DNA of 64,000 bases from Vallicoccus soli. GTDB taxonomy: Bacteria > Actinomycetota > Actinomycetes > Motilibacterales > Motilibacteraceae. A model generated the notes under the pieces. The model was not told the DNA's origin and searched no databases. It saw nothing but the letters and a program-made list of their open reading frames with translations. Position 1 is the first letter of the stretch. Each line of letters begins with the position of its first letter. Position numbers and translations under genes: made by a program. The stretch covers positions 434,001-498,000 of the forward strand of contig NZ_QZEZ01000002.1 in assembly GCF_003594885.1 (NCBI RefSeq). The letters run 5' to 3'. This document shows, piece by piece, positions 1,842 through 62,093 of the stretch.

Positions 1842-3065
1842 TCAGGCGAGGTAGTCGCGCAGCTGCCCCGCGTACTGCGGGTGGCGCAGCTTGGCGAGCG
1901 TCTTGGCCTCGATCTGGCGCACCCGCTCGCGGGTCACCCCGAACACCCGCCCCACCTCCTCGAGGGTGTGCGGCTCGCCGTCGGTGAGCCCGTAGCGCAG
2001 GCGCACGACGTCGCGCTCGCGCTCGCCGAGGTGGTGCAGCACCCGCTCGAGGTGGTGCTGCAGCAGCAGGTACGACGCCGACTCCAGCGGCGCCTGCGCC
2101 TCGCCGTCCTCGATGAGGTCGCCGAGCTCGGAGCCGTCGTCCTCGCCGACCGGCAGGTGCAGCGACACCGGCTCGACGGCGATGCGCCGGATCTCCGCGA
2201 CGCGCTCCGGCGGCAGGTCCACCCGCGCGCCGAGCTCCTCGGCCGTGGGCTCGCGCCCGAGCTCCTGGACCATCTGGCGCTGCGTGCGCAGCAGCCGGTT
2301 GATCGTCTCGACCATGTGCACCGGGACCCGGATCGTGCGGGCCTGGTCGGCGATGGCGCGGGAGATGGCCTGGCGGATCCACCAGCTCGCGTAGGTCGAG
2401 AACTTGAAGCCGCGGGTGTAGTCGAACTTCTCCACCGCGCGGATCAGCCCGAGGTTGCCCTCCTGGACCAGGTCGAGGAACGGCAGCCCGCGCCCGGCGT
2501 ACCGCTTGGCGATGGACACGACCAGGCGCAGGTTGGCCTCGACGAGCTGGGCCTTGGCCAGGGCGCCGTCGTCGGCCACCCGGCGCAGGTCGCGGCGCAG
2601 GGCCGGGTCGGCCACCGCGGTGGACTCGAGCTTCTCCGCCGCGAAGAGCCCGGCCTCGATCCGCCGGGCCAGGTCGACCTCCTGCGCCGCGGTCAGCAGG
2701 GCGACCCGGCCGATCTCGCGCAGGTAGACCCGGACGAGGTCGGTGGTGCTGCGCCCTCCGTCGTCGAGGGAGGGCGCGAGGTCGGGCTCCTCCGGCTCGA
2801 CGGCCACCTCCGCGGCGGCGGCGGCGAGCGCGGCCTCGTCGGGCTCCTCCTCCCCGCCCGGGGCGGGCACGGCCCGCAGGCCGGGTGGTGCGGCGGGGGC
2901 GGCCGGGGCGGAGGGGGCGGGCACGGCCGTCGCGGTCACGACCGGGTGGCCCTGGGCGAGGGCCGGCACGGCGTCGCGGACCGCCCGCGGGGCGGGCAGG
3001 GCGACGGGCAGGGCTTGCATCGGCGCTGCTGCGCCCGCGTCATCGCGCGCTACGGCCTTCGGCAC
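1842..3065 (-). CDS. RNA polymerase sigma-70 factor, group 1/2 (RpoD/HrdB-like)
   Basis: Primary-type sigma factor that directs core RNA polymerase to -35/-10 promoters. After an Ala/Pro-rich N-terminal segment and a region 1.2 ([13 protein letters not shown]) comes a complete region 2 ([33 protein letters not shown]), region 3 ([12 protein letters not shown]), the sequence [20 protein letters not shown] and a region 4.2 helix-turn-helix ([20 protein letters not shown]). The N-terminal extension is much shorter than in Streptomyces HrdB, so it could be the principal factor or a group 2 paralogue such as HrdA. It follows dgt and dnaG on the same strand. The start is uncertain: GTG 3065 has CACACT six bases upstream (leaderless), ATG 3020 lies further in, and an ATG at 3164 is also open. 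Confidence 0.9.
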
Positions 3066-3183
3066 GGGACCAGTGTGCCCCGCGTCACCCCCCGTGCCGC
3101 CAGGTTTTCGCCCGGCGGGGGGCAACGCCTTGGTCTCCCACGACCGGCCCGACGTGCCGTGCACGTGCGGGCACGCAGCGTGC

Positions 3184-5106
3184 CTAGCGGTCGGCGTGCT
3201 CCCCCGCGCCGATGCCGCGCTCGCGCAGCCGCCGCCGGTGCCCCTCGAGCGCGAACAGCTCGCCCGCCAGGCGGTTGTACGCCTCCGGCTCCTCCACCGG
3301 GTTGACCCGCTGCAGCCGCGCCTTGACCTCCACGAGCCGCCGCGTCGCGGCCATCTCCTCGAGCCGGGCGACCAGCTCGGCGGCGTAGCGCGCGCTCCAC
3401 GCCCGGTCCCGCGGCGCCTCGACGGCGAGCTCGGTCGCGAGCGCGCGCACCCCGTCGTCCGCGGCCGCGTCGGACACCCGCGCGGGCCAGGCCGGCCCCT
3501 CCTGCGCCCCCGCGCAGCCGCCGGCCCCGACCACCGCGGCGTGCACGGCGGCGTAGGCCGGGGCGGTGAAGCAGGACGCCTCGAGCAGGTCGTACCCCTC
3601 CCCCGCCAGCCGGGGCGCCTGCAGGGCGAGCTTGAGCGCCTCGCGCTCGACGAAGAGCACGGGGTCGCCCGGGTCGGGCCGGGCCGGGCCGCCGGCCCGG
3701 GCCGGCACCTCGGGGCGCGCCGGGGCGCGGCGCGCGCCCGCCACCTCCTCGCGACCGCCCTCGCCGGCGGCGCGGCGCACCGCGCCCGCCACCGCCTCGA
3801 CCTCCAGCCCGAGCCAGCCGGCGACGGTGCGCACGTACTCCGGGCGCAGGGAGCGGTCGCGGATGCGCCCCAGCACCGGCGCGGCGGCGCGCAGCGCGGA
3901 CACCCGCCCCTCGGCGGTGCCCAGGTCGTAGCGCCCGACCGTGCTCCGCAGCGCGAACTCGAAGAGCGGGACCCGGCGGGCGACGAGCTCGCGCACCGCC
4001 TCGTCGCCCGCGTGCTGGCGCAGCTCGCACGGGTCCATCCCCGACGGCTCCACCGCGACGAAGGTCTGCGTGACGAAGCGCTGGTCGGTGTCGAACGCCT
4101 TGAGCGCGGCCTTCTGCCCGGCCGCGTCGCCGTCGAAGGTGAAGACGACCTCGCCGCGCAGCTCGTCCTGGTCCATGAGCAGCTGGCGCAGGATCTTGAC
4201 GTGCTCGTCGCCGAAGGCGGTGCCGCAGGTGGCGACCGCGGTCGTCACGCCCGCGAGGTGGCAGGCCATGACGTCGGTGTAGCCCTCCACGACGACCGCC
4301 TGCATGCGCTGCGGGATCGAGCGCTTGGCCAGGTCGACGCCGTAGAGCACCTGCGACTTCTTGAAGACCGGCGTCTCGGAGGTGTTGAGGTACTTCGCCT
4401 CGATCCGGTCGTCGTCGTGCAGGCGGCGCGCGCCGAACCCGACCACGTCGCCGGAGCGGTCGCGGATGGGCCACATGAGCCGGCCGACGAAGCGGTCGAT
4501 GACCCCCGAGCCGTCGTTGCGGCGGCGGCCCAGCCCGCCCTCGACGATCTCCTCGTCGCGGAAGCCCTTGCTGCGCAGGTGCTGCACCAGCGCGTCCCAG
4601 GTGCGCGGCGAGTAGCCCACCCCGAAGTGCCGGGCGTCGTCCTGGGTGAACCCGCGCTCGGCGAGGAACCGCCGCCCGGCGACCGCGTCGGGCAGGGTCG
4701 CGAGCTGGGCCTGGTAGAACTCCGCGGCCGCGGCGTGCGCCTGGGTCAGCCGGGTCCTCACGCCGGTGCGGCGGACCGGGGCCCCGCTCGCCGGGCCGTC
4801 GTCGTCGTAGCGCAGGCGCACCCCGAAGCGGTCGGCGAGCCGCTCGACCGCCTCGGTGAAGTCGAGGTGGTCGACCTTGCGCACGAACGAGATGACGTCG
4901 CCGCCCTCGCCGCAGCCGAAGCAGTGCCAGACCCCGCGGTCGGGGCGCACGTTGAACGACGGGGTCTTCTCGTCGTGGAAGGGGCACAGGCCCTTGAGGC
5001 TGCCGCCGCCGGCGCTGCGCAGGGTCAGGCGGTCGCCGACGACCTGCGCGAGGTCGGCCCGCTCCTTGACCAGCGCCACGTCCTCGTCCCTGATGCGCCC
5101 GGCCAC
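3184..5106 (-). CDS. dnaG: DNA primase DnaG
   Basis: Synthesises the RNA primers used at the replication fork, working with DnaB helicase. At 640 aa it has the full three-domain layout. An N-terminal CHC2 zinc ribbon (residues about 40-65; [11 protein letters not shown] then CFGCGEGGD) is followed by a TOPRIM catalytic core with the acidic motif [11 protein letters not shown] and the metal-binding FDGDAAG, then a helical C-terminal helicase-interaction domain. The GTG start is preceded by TAGGAT seven bases upstream and no Shine-Dalgarno, which fits a leaderless transcript. Upstream is dgt (10 bases away) and downstream a sigma factor, reminiscent of the primase-sigma macromolecular synthesis operon of other bacteria. 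Confidence 0.95.
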
Positions 5107-10828: not shown

Positions 10829-11974
10829 TCAACCCCCGCTGGTGACGAGCTCGGCGCCCGCGGGGACGGCGGCATCGTACGGGTCGTCGAGCCACCCCTC
10901 GGGCAGGGCCACCCGCTTCTGCGCGGTCGTCCGCCCGCGGGGCGCGTCGAGCACCGCGACCGGGTAGGGCTGGTCCAGGTCGAGCCGGTCGAGCAGCGCC
11001 CGCAGCTCGTCGAGGTCGCGCACCATGGCGAGCGCCCGGCGCAGGTCCGAGCCGACCGCGAAGCCCTTGAGGTACCACGCCACGTGCTTGCGCAGGTCGC
11101 GCACGCCCTTGTCCTCGCCGAGCTCCTCGGTGAGCAGCTCGGCGTGGCGCACCATGACCGCGGCGACGCCGCGCAGGTCCGGGTCGGCCGGCAGCGGCTC
11201 GCCCCGGAACGCGGTGGCGAGCTGGGCGAACAGCCACGGCCGGCCCAGGCACCCGCGGCCCACGACCACGCCGTCGCACCCGGTGCGCGCGGTCATCCGC
11301 AGGGCGTCCGCGGCGCTCCAGACGTCGCCGTTGCCGAGCACCGGGACGTCGAGCTCGCGCTTGAGCACGGCGATCGCGTCCCAGTCGGCCTGCCCGCTGT
11401 AGTGCTGCACGGCGGTGCGCCCGTGCAGCGCCACCCAGGCCACGCCCTCCTCCTGCGCGATCGCGCCGGCGTCGAGGTACGTCAGGTGCTCGTCGTCGAT
11501 GCCCTTGCGCATCTTCACCGTCACCGGCACGCCGTCCGCCGCCGCGACCGCCTCGCGCAGGATCGCGCGCAGCAGCGGCCGCTTGTACGGCAGCGCCGAC
11601 CCCCCGCCCTTGCGGGTCACCTTGGGCACCGGGCAGCCGAAGTTCAGGTCGACGTGGTCCGCGCGCCCCTCCCCCACGACGATCCGCACGGCCTCGCCGA
11701 CGGTCCGCGGGTCCACGCCGTAGAGCTGCACCGAGCGCACCATCCCCGGGCGCGACTCCTCCGGGTGGAACGTCACCATCCGCAGCGTCTCCGCATCGCG
11801 CTCGACGAGCGCGCGGGACGTGACCATCTCGCTGACGTACAGCCCGCCGCTGGTGCCGCTCAGCTCGCGGCACAGCCGCCGGAACGCCGACCCCGTGATG
11901 CCCGCCATCGGCGCCAGCACGACGGGCGGGTCGACGCGGTGGGGTCCGAGGTGGAGCGGGCTCGCGGGCAGCAC
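10829..11974 (-). CDS. dusB: tRNA-dihydrouridine synthase (DusB-type)
   Basis: FMN-dependent enzyme, 381 aa, that reduces uridine to dihydrouridine in the D-loop of tRNA using NADPH. The TIM barrel carries VVLAPMAGITGSAFRRLCRE (flavin site), VDLNFGCPVPKVTRKGGGSA with the catalytic Cys, KMRKGIDD, ALHGRTAVQHYSG and LGNGDVWSA, then the C-terminal tRNA-binding helical domain (DLRKHVAWYLKGF). GTG 11974 is preferred over the upstream ATG 12028 because TACCGT lies exactly six bases upstream, giving a leaderless mRNA, and because the conserved protein begins there. Confidence 0.93.
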   Translation of the reverse strand: MLPASPLHLGPHRVDPPVVLAPMAGITGSAFRRLCRELSGTSGGLYVSEMVTSRALVERDAETLRMVTFHPEESRPGMVRSVQLYGVDPRTVGEAVRIVVGEGRADHVDLNFGCPVPKVTRKGGGSALPYKRPLLRAILREAVAAADGVPVTVKMRKGIDDEHLTYLDAGAIAQEEGVAWVALHGRTAVQHYSGQADWDAIAVLKRELDVPVLGNGDVWSAADALRMTARTGCDGVVVGRGCLGRPWLFAQLATAFRGEPLPADPDLRGVAAVMVRHAELLTEELGEDKGVRDLRKHVAWYLKGFAVGSDLRRALAMVRDLDELRALLDRLDLDQPYPVAVLDAPRGRTTAQKRVALPEGWLDDPYDAAVPAGAELVTSGG

Positions 11975-11986: not shown

Positions 11987-12046
11987 CGCGCCCGTGCCCG
12001 CACCCCTCGGCGCACGCCCTCGCTGCACGGACGCCGACGGTTCCCC

Positions 12047-12109
12047 GGGAACCGCAGAAGGCGCCCTTCTAGCGATCTAGCCACCACAAGGGCACCTTCT
12101 GCGGTTCCC
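12047..12109. repeat. Palindromic element, copy 1 (GCAGAAGGCGCC family)
   Basis: Two 22-base arms (12047-12068 and 12088-12109) are inverted copies with one mismatch, around a 19-base loop containing CTAGCGATCTAG. The arm core GCAGAAGGCGCCC is shared with copies at 13187 and 50707. It lies just past the stop of the orphan endonuclease gene, between it and the dusB start. Confidence 0.85.
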
Positions 12110-12117
12110 GACCGCGG

Positions 12118-13089
12118 CTACGAGGCCCGCGTCCCGGACGACACGCGTACCGCCGGCGCAGGGCGTCCGGCACCCACGGCGAGCGCGGACCGCAGCTGCT
12201 CCACGACGCTCGCGGCGTCGTCACGGAGCTGCTGCGGCGTGACCGGGAGGACGAGCACCCCGAGGCTCGCCAGCGCCCGTCGTCGGCGCTGGTCGGCCTG
12301 CCACCGCGCCGGTGACAGGTGCCACTCCCGCGAGTCCACCTCGAGCGCGACGCCGCACTGGGGCCAGTACGCGTCCGGTCGCGCGACGAAGCGCCCGGCC
12401 TCGTCGACGAGGTCGACGTTCCAGGACGCGGCCGGCAGCTGCGCGGCGAGGAGCAGACGGCGCGCCCTGGCCTCCGCCACGCTGCGCACCCCGGCCGCCA
12501 CCTCGGCGAGCGCCGCTCGTGGCCGCAGCGTGCCGCGCCGTTGCGCTTGGCGGAGCTCGCGGGCCAGCTGCGCCTCGTCGCACCGGGACCGCTGGACCGC
12601 TTCGGAGACGATCTGGCGCACCAGGTCGAGGTCGTCCAGCCGCCTGCACCGGTCGATGACGGCGCGAGCGACCGGGGCGACCGGCACGCCGTCGACCTCA
12701 CGGGCGCGCGGCAGGCGCACGGTCCTCTCCACGACCACGAAGCCGACGCTCTTGCGCCTCCTCGCGTGCGGCACCAGCAGCTCGACCTCCGGCGCACCCG
12801 CGGCGGCGCGCAGCCCCGACCGGCGCAGCGCCTCCGCGCCCGTGAGGACGGACCCCGCTCCCCCGTAGAGCACGGCGGCCCTCGCGCGCTGCGTCGACGT
12901 CGGCGTCCCCCCGTGCGCGAGCACGACACCGGGGAGCAGTCGCTGCCACGGACCGCCCGGCCGCGTGCGGTGACCCCAGGTGCCCGACGCCATGCCCACC
13001 TCCCGCAGCTGGCGGTGCGTCACGACGGCGTCCTGGGCCCGCAGCAGGGCCTCGAGCGCGGGCACGTCGTACTCGGCACGGCGGGGCAC
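12118..13089 (-). CDS. AbiEi-antitoxin-like / DUF559 endonuclease-fold protein (orphan)
   Basis: 323 aa. The N-terminus (LEALLRAQDAVVTHRQLREV) is a winged-helix segment as in AbiEi type IV antitoxins. The C-terminal 100 residues resemble the Vsr/DUF559 nuclease fold: VARPDAYWPQCGVALEVDS supplies the D and E-x-D of a PD-(D/E)XK site, followed by REWHLSPARWQADQRRRRAL and VLVLPVTPQQL. Such proteins are abundant and highly variable in actinobacteria and their function is unknown. No toxin partner (AbiEii) is adjacent. The gene is bracketed by two palindromic elements (12047-12109 and 13187-13248), which hints at unit-wise acquisition. GTG start at 13089; the ribosome binding site is weak. Confidence 0.72.
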   Translation of the reverse strand: MPRRAEYDVPALEALLRAQDAVVTHRQLREVGMASGTWGHRTRPGGPWQRLLPGVVLAHGGTPTSTQRARAAVLYGGAGSVLTGAEALRRSGLRAAAGAPEVELLVPHARRRKSVGFVVVERTVRLPRAREVDGVPVAPVARAVIDRCRRLDDLDLVRQIVSEAVQRSRCDEAQLARELRQAQRRGTLRPRAALAEVAAGVRSVAEARARRLLLAAQLPAASWNVDLVDEAGRFVARPDAYWPQCGVALEVDSREWHLSPARWQADQRRRRALASLGVLVLPVTPQQLRDDAASVVEQLRSALAVGAGRPAPAVRVSSGTRAS

Positions 13090-13186
13090 CGGTCGACGAT
13101 GACGGCGCGCCGGCTCCGCGCGCTGCGTCCGCTGCGCGCACCTGGGGACGATCCGCGGTCCGTGCGCCTGTGGACAGCGCCACCCT

Positions 13187-13248
13187 GGAACCGCAGAAGG
13201 CGCCCTCGTGGCGATCTAGCCGCCAGAGGGGCGCCTTCTGCGGATCCG
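13187..13248. repeat. Palindromic element, copy 2 (GCAGAAGGCGCC family)
   Basis: Inverted repeat with arms starting GGAACCGCAGAAGGCGCCC on the left and the complementary GGCGCCTTCTGCGGATCC on the right, with several mismatches nearer the loop. The centre, GCGATCTAGCCGCC, closely matches the loop of copy 1 (AGCGATCTAGCCACC). It lies about 40 bases past the glycyl-tRNA synthetase gene and upstream of the endonuclease gene. Confidence 0.82.
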
Positions 13249-13286
13249 GGGGATCCGGAGCAGCGGTGCGCGCGGCGGAGCGGGCC

Positions 13287-14675
<1,389 letters not shown>

Positions 14676-47947: not shown

Positions 47948-47970
47948 CGCAGGGGTCCGCTGCACCCGCG

Positions 47971-48004
47971 CCGGCCGCGCCGCCCTCCCGGGCGGCGCGG
48001 CCGG
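47971..48004. terminator. Bidirectional terminator between carboxypeptidase and oxidoreductase
   Basis: A perfect 15-bp GC-only stem (47971-47985 with 47990-48004) closes a 4-base TCCC loop, in the gap between two convergent genes. No U-run, as usual for actinobacteria. Confidence 0.8.
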
Positions 48005-48018
48005 TGCCGTACGGGCCG

Positions 48019-49191: not shown

Positions 49192-50694
49192 ATGCCCCAC
49201 GGCACCACCAGCACGTCCGGCACGACCCGCCCCACCCCCCGCAGCACCGCCCGGCCGCAGCACCGCCCGGCCGCAGCGCGGACCACGTACGGCCGGCGCC
49301 CCGCGCCCCGCCCGACCGGTCCGGACCCGCTCGAGCAGCTGTTCACCGCGTCGGCCGAGGCCTTCGACGCGACCGCGGAGCTGCCCTCGTTCCACGACCT
49401 CGGCCTGCCGCAGCCGCTCGTCACCGCGCTGGAGCGGCGCGGCATGCACGCGCCGTTCGCCATCCAGGCCCGCGTCATGCCCGACGCGCTCGCCGGGCGG
49501 GACGTCCTCGGCCGCGCCCAGACCGGCTCCGGCAAGACGCTCGGCTTCGGCCTGCCGATGCTGACCCGCCTGGCCGGCGGCACCCGCGAGAGCCGCCGCC
49601 CGCGGGGCCTCGTCCTCGTCCCGACCCGCGAGCTGGCCAACCAGGTCCGCGACGCGCTCGGCCCGCTGGGGCACGCGCTCGACCTGCGCCTCGGCGTCGT
49701 CGTCGGCGGCGCCCCGTACAGCCGGCAGATCGAGCAGCTGCGCCGCGGCGTCGACGTGCTCGTCGCCACCCCGGGCCGGCTCATCGACCTGCTCGACCGC
49801 GGCGAGGTGCGCCTCGACGCCGTCGAGGTCACCGTGCTCGACGAGGCCGACTACATGGCGGACCTGGGCTTCCTGCCCGCGGTCACGCAGATCCTCGACC
49901 TCACCCCCGCGGGCACGCAGCGCCTGCTCTTCTCGGCCACGCTGGACAGCGGCGTGCGCCGGCTCGTCACCGCGTACCTGCGCGACCCGGCGGCTCACGC
50001 GGTCGCCGACGCCACGTCGCACGTCGAGAACATGGAGCACCGGGCGTACGTCGTGCGCCCGCACGAGAAGCTCGCCGTCCTCGCCGAGATCGCCCAGCGC
50101 CCGGCGCGCACGCTGTTCTTCGCGCGGACCAAGCAGGGCGCCCAGCGCCTCGCCGACCAGCTCGTCGAGGCGGGCGTGCCGGCGACGGCGATCCACGGCG
50201 ACCTGCCGCAGGGCGCGCGCCAGCGCGCGCTCGGCGCCTTCGCCGCGGGCCGCAGCCGCGTGCTCGTCGCCACGGACGTCGCCGCGCGCGGCATCCACGT
50301 CGACGAGCTCGACCTCGTCGTGCACGTGGACCCGCCGGCGGACCACAAGGACTACCTGCACCGCTCCGGCCGCACGGCGCGCGCGGGCACCGCGGGCGTC
50401 GTCCTGTCGATCCTGCTGCCGGGGCAGCGCCGCACCGCCGCCCAGCTGTTCGACCGGGCCGGCGTCGAGGCCGACATGCGGTACGTCGCCCCCGGCGACG
50501 AGCTCGTCCGCGAGCTCGCCGAGTCCGGCGAGCCGGTCGTCGTCAAGGAGGAGCCGCGCCGGTCCTCCGGCCCGCGCCGCTCCGGCCCCCGCCGCCCGGG
50601 CGGGCGCTACCGGGGCGAGCGCAGCGACCGCGGCGAGCGGGGCGAGCGCAGCGAGCACCGGGGTCCGCGCCGACCGCGGGCCGACGCCGCCTGA
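49192..50694 (+). CDS. DEAD-box RNA helicase
   Basis: 500 aa. Helicase motifs in order: Q motif (FHDLGLPQPLVTALERRGMH), Walker A AQTGSGKT, PTRELA, TPGR, DEADYMAD, SAT, and in domain 2 GDLPQGARQRALGAFAAG, ATDVAARGIHVDELDLVVH and HRSGRTARAG. The C-terminal 50 residues are Arg/Gly/Ser-rich (RRSSGPRRSGPRRPGGRYR), a likely RNA-binding tail. It probably helps ribosome assembly or mRNA turnover, especially in the cold. ATG 49192 follows a long leader. Confidence 0.93.
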   Translation: MPHGTTSTSGTTRPTPRSTARPQHRPAAARTTYGRRPAPRPTGPDPLEQLFTASAEAFDATAELPSFHDLGLPQPLVTALERRGMHAPFAIQARVMPDALAGRDVLGRAQTGSGKTLGFGLPMLTRLAGGTRESRRPRGLVLVPTRELANQVRDALGPLGHALDLRLGVVVGGAPYSRQIEQLRRGVDVLVATPGRLIDLLDRGEVRLDAVEVTVLDEADYMADLGFLPAVTQILDLTPAGTQRLLFSATLDSGVRRLVTAYLRDPAAHAVADATSHVENMEHRAYVVRPHEKLAVLAEIAQRPARTLFFARTKQGAQRLADQLVEAGVPATAIHGDLPQGARQRALGAFAAGRSRVLVATDVAARGIHVDELDLVVHVDPPADHKDYLHRSGRTARAGTAGVVLSILLPGQRRTAAQLFDRAGVEADMRYVAPGDELVRELAESGEPVVVKEEPRRSSGPRRSGPRRPGGRYRGERSDRGERGERSEHRGPRRPRADAA

Positions 50695-50706: not shown

Positions 50707-50767
50707 GGTAGCGCAGAAGGCGCCCCTGTCGCGCTAGGTCCGCGACAAGGGCGCCTTCTGCGCTACC
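50707..50767. repeat. Palindromic element, copy 3 (GCAGAAGGCGCC family)
   Basis: Two 27-base arms (50707-50733 and 50741-50767) are inverted copies with one mismatch around the 7-base loop CTAGGTC. The arm core GCAGAAGGCGCCC is identical to copies 1 and 2; this copy starts GGTAGCG in place of GGAACCG. It lies at the junction of the helicase gene and a methyltransferase pseudogene. Confidence 0.9.
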
Positions 50768-51862: not shown

Positions 51863-51982
51863 GCGGCCCGGGACAGGACGCGACGGCTTCACCCGTACGG
51901 CCCACGCGACCACGGCGACCGGCCTACGGTCTGCGGCAAGGCGGCGTCGTCCGCGCCGCCTCGCCGCAGCGAGGAGGCTGCC

Positions 51983-55817: not shown

Positions 55818-55862
55818 CGCGCGGGCGGGGCCCGACTCCCCCCTCCAGGCCCCGCCCGCGCG
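55818..55862. terminator. Bidirectional GC-rich terminator between DUF4870 and hemW
   Basis: A perfect 15-bp stem (55818-55832 with 55848-55862) with a 15-base loop, between convergent genes. The rest of the 243-base gap (55642-55884) shows nothing else I can name. Confidence 0.7.
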
Positions 55863-62055: not shown

Positions 62056-62093
62056 CGGGAGCGCCGCACCCCTCGAGGGGTGCGGCGCTCCCG
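62056..62093. terminator. rpsT terminator (perfect 38-bp palindrome)
   Basis: CGGGAGCGCCGCACCCCTC is followed by its exact reverse complement (62056-62093), 38 bases after the rpsT stop codon and in front of the convergent holA 3' end. Confidence 0.9.

What the first reader, a model, noticed from the sequence alone, without database searches (positions are those of the whole stretch)
12047..13248. Two related palindromes bracket the AbiEi/DUF559-like orphan endonuclease gene
Copies at 12047-12109 and 13187-13248 share the arm core GCAGAAGGCGCCC and a loop with GATCTAGCC. Exactly one gene, a nuclease-fold protein of a class that is highly variable and often horizontally distributed in actinobacteria, sits between them. 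Seen: the repeats and the gene. Inferred: the palindromes may be a mobilisable non-autonomous element, or recognition sites, or terminators marking an acquired unit. Family knowledge: REP/MITE-like palindromes in other bacteria are associated with dedicated nucleases, and such a link here would be new.
Basis: partly seen in the sequence, partly recalled or inferred. Interest (0 to 1): 0.72.

Follow-up and report, generated by a model that had tools for sequence, protein, structure and literature searches.

The report
Nuclease gene bracketed by spreading palindromes
In many actinobacteria one family of DNA-cutting-enzyme genes sits between two copies of a palindromic DNA repeat; the repeat has a different sequence in nearly every lineage and, where checked, is usually scattered through that genome, which suggests a previously undescribed enzyme-and-repeat partnership like the REP/RAYT systems of other bacteria but built on an unrelated enzyme.

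Summary
Two ~65-nt palindromes (12046-12110, 13183-13251; 86% identical) bracket one gene (12118-13089, -), an AbiEi-like winged-helix protein with a Vsr-like (MTES_1575) nuclease domain. The palindrome is a 55-nt family with 18 strong copies in this genome, none in four family relatives; copies lie just after stop codons.

The decisive result is family-wide. In 65 loci of this nuclease family across the class, 33 carry the same repeat on both sides, against 1 of 177 neighbouring control genes. Palindrome sequences differ in nearly every lineage. The second nuclease of this genome has its own private family (146 matches); a relative (G002) has about 20 copies of its own; an annotated Rhodococcus ruber record has six. 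About half of the bracketing palindromes carry CTA/TAG at the apex (23/50 against 5% background). The gene is ancestral next to glyS but inverted in the window, exactly between the two palindromes.

Best reading: a REPtron-like pair, in which a dedicated nuclease recognises and propagates or maintains its cognate dispersed palindrome, with an enzyme unrelated to the HUH transposases of REP/RAYT. Association: near certain. Mechanism: inferred.

The parts
12046..12110 (.). Palindrome downstream (3') of the nuclease gene; hairpin, loop GATCTAGCC/GGCTAGATC
   Evidence: R1 match 7.8e-18 (by construction a model member)
13183..13251 (.). Palindrome upstream (5') of the nuclease gene and 3' of glyS; same family
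   Evidence: R1 match 3.5e-18 (by construction a model member)
12038..12054 (.). Flanking mini-palindrome CGGTTCCCCGGGAACCG that overlaps the outer foot of the hairpin
   Evidence: sequence; similar mini-hairpins beside many other copies
13241..13257 (.). Flanking mini-palindrome CGGATCCGGGGGATCCG on the glyS side
   Evidence: sequence
12118..13089 (-). Palindrome-associated nuclease gene: AbiEi-like wHTH region plus C-terminal Vsr-like REase (MTES_1575/DUF559 type), 323 aa
   Evidence: Pfam MTES_1575 E 8.3e-5, below curated cut-off; PADLOC AbiEi E 3e-11; E206, D239, E250, H257 conserved
12160..12492 (-). Nuclease domain (about residues 200-310)
12520..13038 (-). AbiEi-like DNA-binding region (about residues 18-190)
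50707..50767 (.). Third copy of the same palindrome family in the window, 3' of an unrelated gene ending at 50694
13287..14675 (-). glyS, conserved neighbour used for synteny (context, not part of the system)
10829..11974 (-). dusB, conserved neighbour used for synteny (context, not part of the system)

Best explanation
The window holds a REPtron-like unit: a single-copy gene for an AbiEi-like winged-helix + Vsr-like nuclease, bracketed by two copies of its cognate ~55-nt palindrome, with non-autonomous copies of that palindrome dispersed in the genome. Most likely mechanism (inferred): the DNA-binding part recognises the conserved outer arms of the palindrome when it is extruded as a hairpin or cruciform (for instance at replication forks), the Vsr-like domain nicks it (the apex, often CTA/TAG, is a candidate site), and repair or template switching copies the palindrome into other intergenic spots, mainly 3' ends of genes where it does least harm and can also serve as a bidirectional terminator. 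Shown: bracketing, dispersal, private sequence per nuclease, lineage turnover, the gene's conserved position, its inversion between the palindromes in this genome, and conserved putative catalytic residues. Inferred: recognition, nicking, copying.
For: (1) Bracketing: a repeat shared by the 400-nt flanks scores >=20 in 33/65 nuclease loci vs 1/177 neighbouring control genes (Fisher p about 2e-21, loci not fully independent). In 375 further genes only 4 reach 20, one being this nuclease. (2) The repeats are mostly 45-60-nt palindromes, about 80-150 nt before the start and 5-80 nt after the stop, different in sequence in nearly every lineage. (3) Dispersal: family 1, 18 strong copies; own second nuclease's family, 146 matches vs 0 own-genome control and 0 in four relatives; G002 about 20 places, 0 in the same-genus G004; G003 and G004 extra clusters; G101 one extra; R. 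ruber six copies in 74 kb with 0 control. (4) Two nucleases in one genome each have a private family. (5) Outer arms constant, inner stem more variable, length 55 in three sequence-unrelated families; compensatory changes favour the long hairpin in family 1. (6) Apex CTA/TAG 23/50 vs 37/692 background. (7) E206 and D239 invariant in 64 members; H257 in all 34 bracketed ones. (8) Gene inverted between the palindromes only in this genome among those with the glyS synteny.
Against: No biochemical evidence that the nuclease touches the palindrome. No empty-versus-filled site pair within the window's genus was available, so recent movement is not shown. Covariation support is clear for family 1 but weak for G002. 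In sampled G108 contigs only the bracketing copies were found, so dispersal is not universal. 32 of 65 loci score below 20; 10 of these are one clade without palindromes, and 9 of those 10 lack H257, which is one evolutionary event, not an independent test. A genome-wide search for a RAYT-type transposase was not made.
Confidence: 0.6

Rival explanations
1. The palindromes are just sequence-related transcription terminators; the pair insulates a potentially toxic nuclease gene from read-through on both sides.
For: Copies of family 1 lie shortly after a stop codon, many between convergent genes, none in a divergent gap; G002 and R. ruber copies are mostly 3' too. Long hairpin with compensatory changes. 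Two copies in the window lie about 8 and 36 nt after stops.
Against: No T-run follows; other strong hairpins of the window are unrelated in sequence; 3 of 19 G002 copies lie in divergent gaps; terminators do not explain why each nuclease has its own private sequence family, nor 30-nt-period arrays. G-U versus A-C mismatches on the transcribed strand are 9 to 4, not significant.
Confidence: 0.15
2. The palindromes are operators: the AbiEi-like wHTH binds them to repress its own gene (and perhaps other genes), as AbiEi antitoxins bind inverted repeats at their own promoter (own knowledge).
For: AbiEi homology; upstream copy usually 80-150 nt before the start.
Against: The second copy lies after the gene, and dispersed copies lie at 3' ends rather than promoters; arrays and within-genus turnover are unexpected for operators.
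Confidence: 0.12
3. Another enzyme (e.g. a RAYT/IS200-type transposase) spreads the palindromes and the nuclease gene is a preferred landing site or a passenger.
For: REP-like behaviour of the repeats; IS200-type enzymes are the known mobilisers of REPs (PMC8266576). Genome-wide absence of such an enzyme was not tested.
Against: Bracketing is tied to the nuclease in many genera with unrelated palindromes, and to both nucleases in one genome. No GTAG/CGTC tag is constant at the foot.
Confidence: 0.08
4. Defensive or repair nuclease: the host keeps the nuclease to process cruciforms or mobile DNA, and the bracketing palindromes are decoys or scars.
For: Vertical, fixed position next to glyS; AbiEi matches in the defence library.
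Against: Does not explain private dispersed families; lacks the AbiEii partner (neighbours are dusB and glyS).
Confidence: 0.05

Closest known systems
REPtron: REP/REPIN palindromes with RAYT (TnpA_REP) (PMC3116915, PMC3733652, PMC8266576)
   Same: Single-copy enzyme gene flanked by palindromes that are dispersed in intergenic space, mostly near 3' ends of unidirectional or convergent genes; sequence specific to the enzyme lineage.
   Different: Enzyme is a winged-helix + Vsr-like nuclease, not an HUH Y1 transposase; palindromes ~55 nt without a constant GTAG/CGTC tag; found in actinobacteria, a phylum not among those listed for GTAG repeats in the passage of PMC3733652 read here.
Type IV toxin-antitoxin AbiEi antitoxins (AbiEi_1, AbiEi_4)
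   Same: N-terminal and middle part of the protein (PADLOC AbiEi; Pfam in relatives).
   Different: No AbiEii nucleotidyltransferase toxin beside it; fused to a nuclease domain; bracketed by palindromes.
Vsr-like REases: MTES_1575 (PF18741), DUF559 (PF04480), Vsr
   Same: C-terminal domain matches weakly; conserved E...D...E...H with the D-to-H spacing of 18 recalled from memory for Vsr D51/H69.
   Different: MTES_1575 was named in a large HEPN fusion protein (PMC3710099); no link to palindromes found in the papers searched.
CGTC REPs (PMC3733652)
   Same: Dispersed palindromes at 3' ends with no HUH partner.
   Different: CGTC REPs are described as lacking a dedicated enzyme; here one is proposed.
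Mobile GC clusters / double-hairpin elements of fungal mitochondria (own knowledge)
   Same: Dispersed hairpins thought to be mobile.
   Different: Organelle elements, no dedicated bracketed nuclease gene of this type.

Membership tests
REPtron (REP + RAYT) | HUH Y1 tyrosine transposase gene | tested here: not met
   Protein matches MTES_1575 and AbiEi families, no Y1 transposase match
REPtron (REP + RAYT) | Constant GTAG (or CGTC) tetranucleotide at one foot of the palindrome | tested here: not met
   Foot is mostly GnACC/CGG; GTAG in 2 of 17 aligned copies
REPtron (REP + RAYT) | Enzyme gene flanked by the palindromes | tested here: met
REPtron (REP + RAYT) | Palindromes dispersed, extragenic, biased to 3' ends | tested here: met
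REPtron (REP + RAYT) | Enzyme cleaves cognate single-stranded palindrome | not testable with these tools
   needs biochemistry
Intrinsic terminator | GC-rich hairpin followed by T-run | tested here: not met
   Hairpin yes, T-run no
Intrinsic terminator | Located only at gene 3' ends | tested here: inconclusive
   Family 1: no divergent gaps; G002: 3 of 19 divergent, 1 in a called gene
AbiE toxin-antitoxin system | Adjacent AbiEii toxin gene | tested here: not met
   Neighbours are dusB and glyS
MITE / insertion sequence | Terminal inverted repeats with target-site duplication | not tested
   No same-genus empty sites were available
Known RNA family (Rfam 15) | Match above gathering score | tested here: not met
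   Only sub-threshold microRNA-precursor matches
Vsr-like REase (MTES_1575/DUF559) | Profile match and conserved acidic/His residues | tested here: inconclusive
   Matches below the curated cut-off; E206, D239 invariant, E250 95%, H257 85%

The most novel reading that the evidence does not exclude
A second, independent class of enzyme-driven dispersed palindromes in bacteria: Vsr-like nucleases of actinobacteria, each recognising and spreading or maintaining its own private hairpin family, with recognition specificity and palindromes co-evolving, in a vertically inherited gene kept next to glyS in several families.
Probability: 0.55. Interest if true: 0.92.

Novelty: categorically new. Interest (0 to 1): 0.85.

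Why it matters
REP/RAYT has been the model for dispersed bacterial palindromes with a dedicated enzyme. An unrelated nuclease in actinobacteria with the same genomic arrangement would be convergent evolution of that partnership. It would give a candidate enzyme class for orphan palindromes (the CGTC REPs are described as lacking one) and a large set of natural nuclease-hairpin pairs with different specificities. It also assigns a likely role to a group of genes now annotated as hypothetical, AbiEi or DUF559.

Tried and rejected
Short nested hairpins instead of one long hairpin (poorer pairing, weaker covariation). RNA-versus-DNA test by G-U asymmetry: 9 to 4, p 0.27, inconclusive. Rfam: nothing above threshold. 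Solved structures by sequence: none. AlphaFold without alignment: pLDDT 38, unusable. Viral contigs and phage records: no relatives. Collection-wide pattern scan for the window's own palindrome: five isolated hits in scattered taxa (records of the window's own genome may be left out there), so the exact sequence is private. The idea that the gene was acquired as a unit: rejected by synteny. The idea that the window palindrome is a general terminator of this genome: rejected, about 18 copies only and other strong hairpins in the window are unrelated. H257 loss as independent support: rejected, one event.

Full report
WHAT IS THERE. The two palindromes are real: 12046-12110 and 13183-13251, 86% identical over 65 nt, both with arms GCAGAAGGCGCC and loop GATCTAGCC. 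Between them is one gene, 12118-13089 on the minus strand. Its 323-aa product matches AbiEi models over residues 18-190 and, weakly and below the curated cut-off, the Vsr-like REase MTES_1575 at the C-terminus. Neighbours on the same strand are glyS and dusB (names from my own reading of the sequences).

GENOME-WIDE DISTRIBUTION. A pattern of both arms with a free 25-nt middle finds 17 places per strand against 0 for the reversed control. A covariance model finds 18 strong and 2 weak copies; the strong ones lie in 16 separate places, two of them tandem pairs. The gene-context run covered all 20: each lies shortly after at least one stop codon and none is inside a gene or in a purely divergent gap. 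The hairpin is supported by compensatory changes (13 cells, none of 500 shuffles as high), and nested short hairpins are not. The same pattern is absent from 29 other genomes at two mismatches; at three mismatches one unrelated-looking site appears in G004.

RELATIVES KEEP THE GENE BUT WITH OTHER PALINDROMES. All four family relatives have the nuclease next to glyS. Reading the gaps shows palindromes of a different sequence around it: TTGGCACGATGTGACTTCTTGCCAA on both sides in G002; GAACAAGGGCACCCAGTG in G004; TTGGCAGAATGCCGCATTC arrays in G003, with decayed relatives of them on the other side and in G001. A paralogous nuclease in the window's own genome (48% identical) is flanked by TGAGGGTGCCCCTCA palindromes.

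FAMILY-WIDE TEST. A profile of five members searched in 148 genomes of the class found about 100 places. I fetched 60 and added the window, the paralog and the four relatives. In 65 loci with enough flank, the best local alignment between the 400-nt flanks reached 20 in 33, against 1 of 177 other genes of 400-2500 bp in the same loci. Among 375 further genes of 500-2000 bp from the window and two other genomes, 4 reached 20, one being the window nuclease and two lying beside a palindrome family that also flanks a nuclease of that genome on one side. Flanks of different genomes rarely match each other (31 of 4248 pairs reach 20; close relatives are the likely source). The shared repeats are mostly palindromes of 45-60 nt. 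The score-20 cut-off misses visible but diverged pairs (L090, L091). Bracketed members are spread over the tree with at least 13 changes of state on well-supported branches.

DISPERSAL. G002's palindrome occurs at about 20 places in G002 and nowhere in the four other genomes of the family, including same-genus G004. The own paralog's palindrome has 146 matches (up to one mismatch), 0 in relatives, 0 in the own-genome control. Samples of 400 kb show extra clusters in G004 (2), G003 (1) and G101 (1); sampled G108 contigs show only the bracketing copies. In the annotated Rhodococcus ruber record NZ_CP145323.1, six copies occur in 74 kb, two bracketing Rruber_RS29040; no other plasmid record holds that palindrome. 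Contexts in G002: 9 convergent, 6 tandem, 3 divergent, 1 in a called gene. One convergent gap holds unrelated palindromes in G002, G003 and G004.

ANATOMY. Three sequence-unrelated families (own, G002, R. ruber) share a 55-nt length, with constant outer arms and a more variable inner stem. About half of bracketing palindromes carry CTA or TAG at the apex, 23/50 against 37/692 background windows; the two copies of a locus are not independent. The nuclease keeps E206 and D239 in 64 of 64 members, E250 in 95% and H257 in 85%. H257 is kept in all 34 bracketed members; the nine without it belong to one clade of ten unbracketed members, a single event. From memory, Vsr has E25, D51 and H69, with the same D-to-H spacing of 18.

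INVERSION. In every other genome with this synteny, in several families, the nuclease is convergent with glyS; in the window it is tandem. The inverted segment is the one bounded by the two palindromes. This is a derived state by parsimony and the clearest sign of rearrangement at these repeats.

INTERPRETATION. The association is solid; the mechanism is inferred. The arrangement is that of REPtrons (PMC3733652, PMC8266576), but two defining features fail: the enzyme is not an HUH transposase and there is no constant GTAG/CGTC tag. I therefore describe it as working like a REPtron without being one. A terminator role of dispersed copies is compatible and likely secondary. Nine paper searches found no description of such a nuclease-palindrome link, but only open-access papers are held, so prior description elsewhere cannot be excluded.

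LIMITS.

Noticed in passing
G000:C2:22847-23133, C1:171589-171784, C12:5141-5306 (loci L215-L218, L238-L243): The second palindrome family of this genome forms arrays: half-units with a 30-nt period converge on a central 46-nt palindrome and continue inverted behind it. G003 shows a similar design with a 32-33-nt period.
   Followed up: partly
L210 (G002), L053 (G003), G004 C2 about 510970-511056: The same convergent intergenic slot holds unrelated palindromes in three genomes, as if slots are reused or overwritten.
   Followed up: partly
L176 (G058), flanks of the nuclease at about 3001-3894: This nuclease is flanked by 200-265-nt imperfect inverted repeats instead of a short palindrome, like a full transposon end.
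   Followed up: no
L126, L127, L128 (one genus): The nuclease is flanked by a 33-43-nt inverted pair (GGGCCATGTCACACCGGTTCGGTCATTTCGAAC) that is not itself palindromic.
   Followed up: no
window 47968-48007, 51931-51969, 55818-55862, 62056-62093: Strong hairpins without T-runs after other genes, unrelated in sequence to the palindrome family; ordinary terminator candidates.
   Followed up: no
NZ_CP145323.1 (L324, L325): Labelled a Rhodococcus ruber plasmid but carries serS, pks13 and arabinosyltransferase genes, so it looks like a piece of chromosome.
   Followed up: no
loci L142, L157-L160, L162-L164, L166: A vertically inherited clade of the nuclease without palindromes has lost His257 (R or L instead), so it may be a catalytically dead, repurposed protein.
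   Followed up: partly
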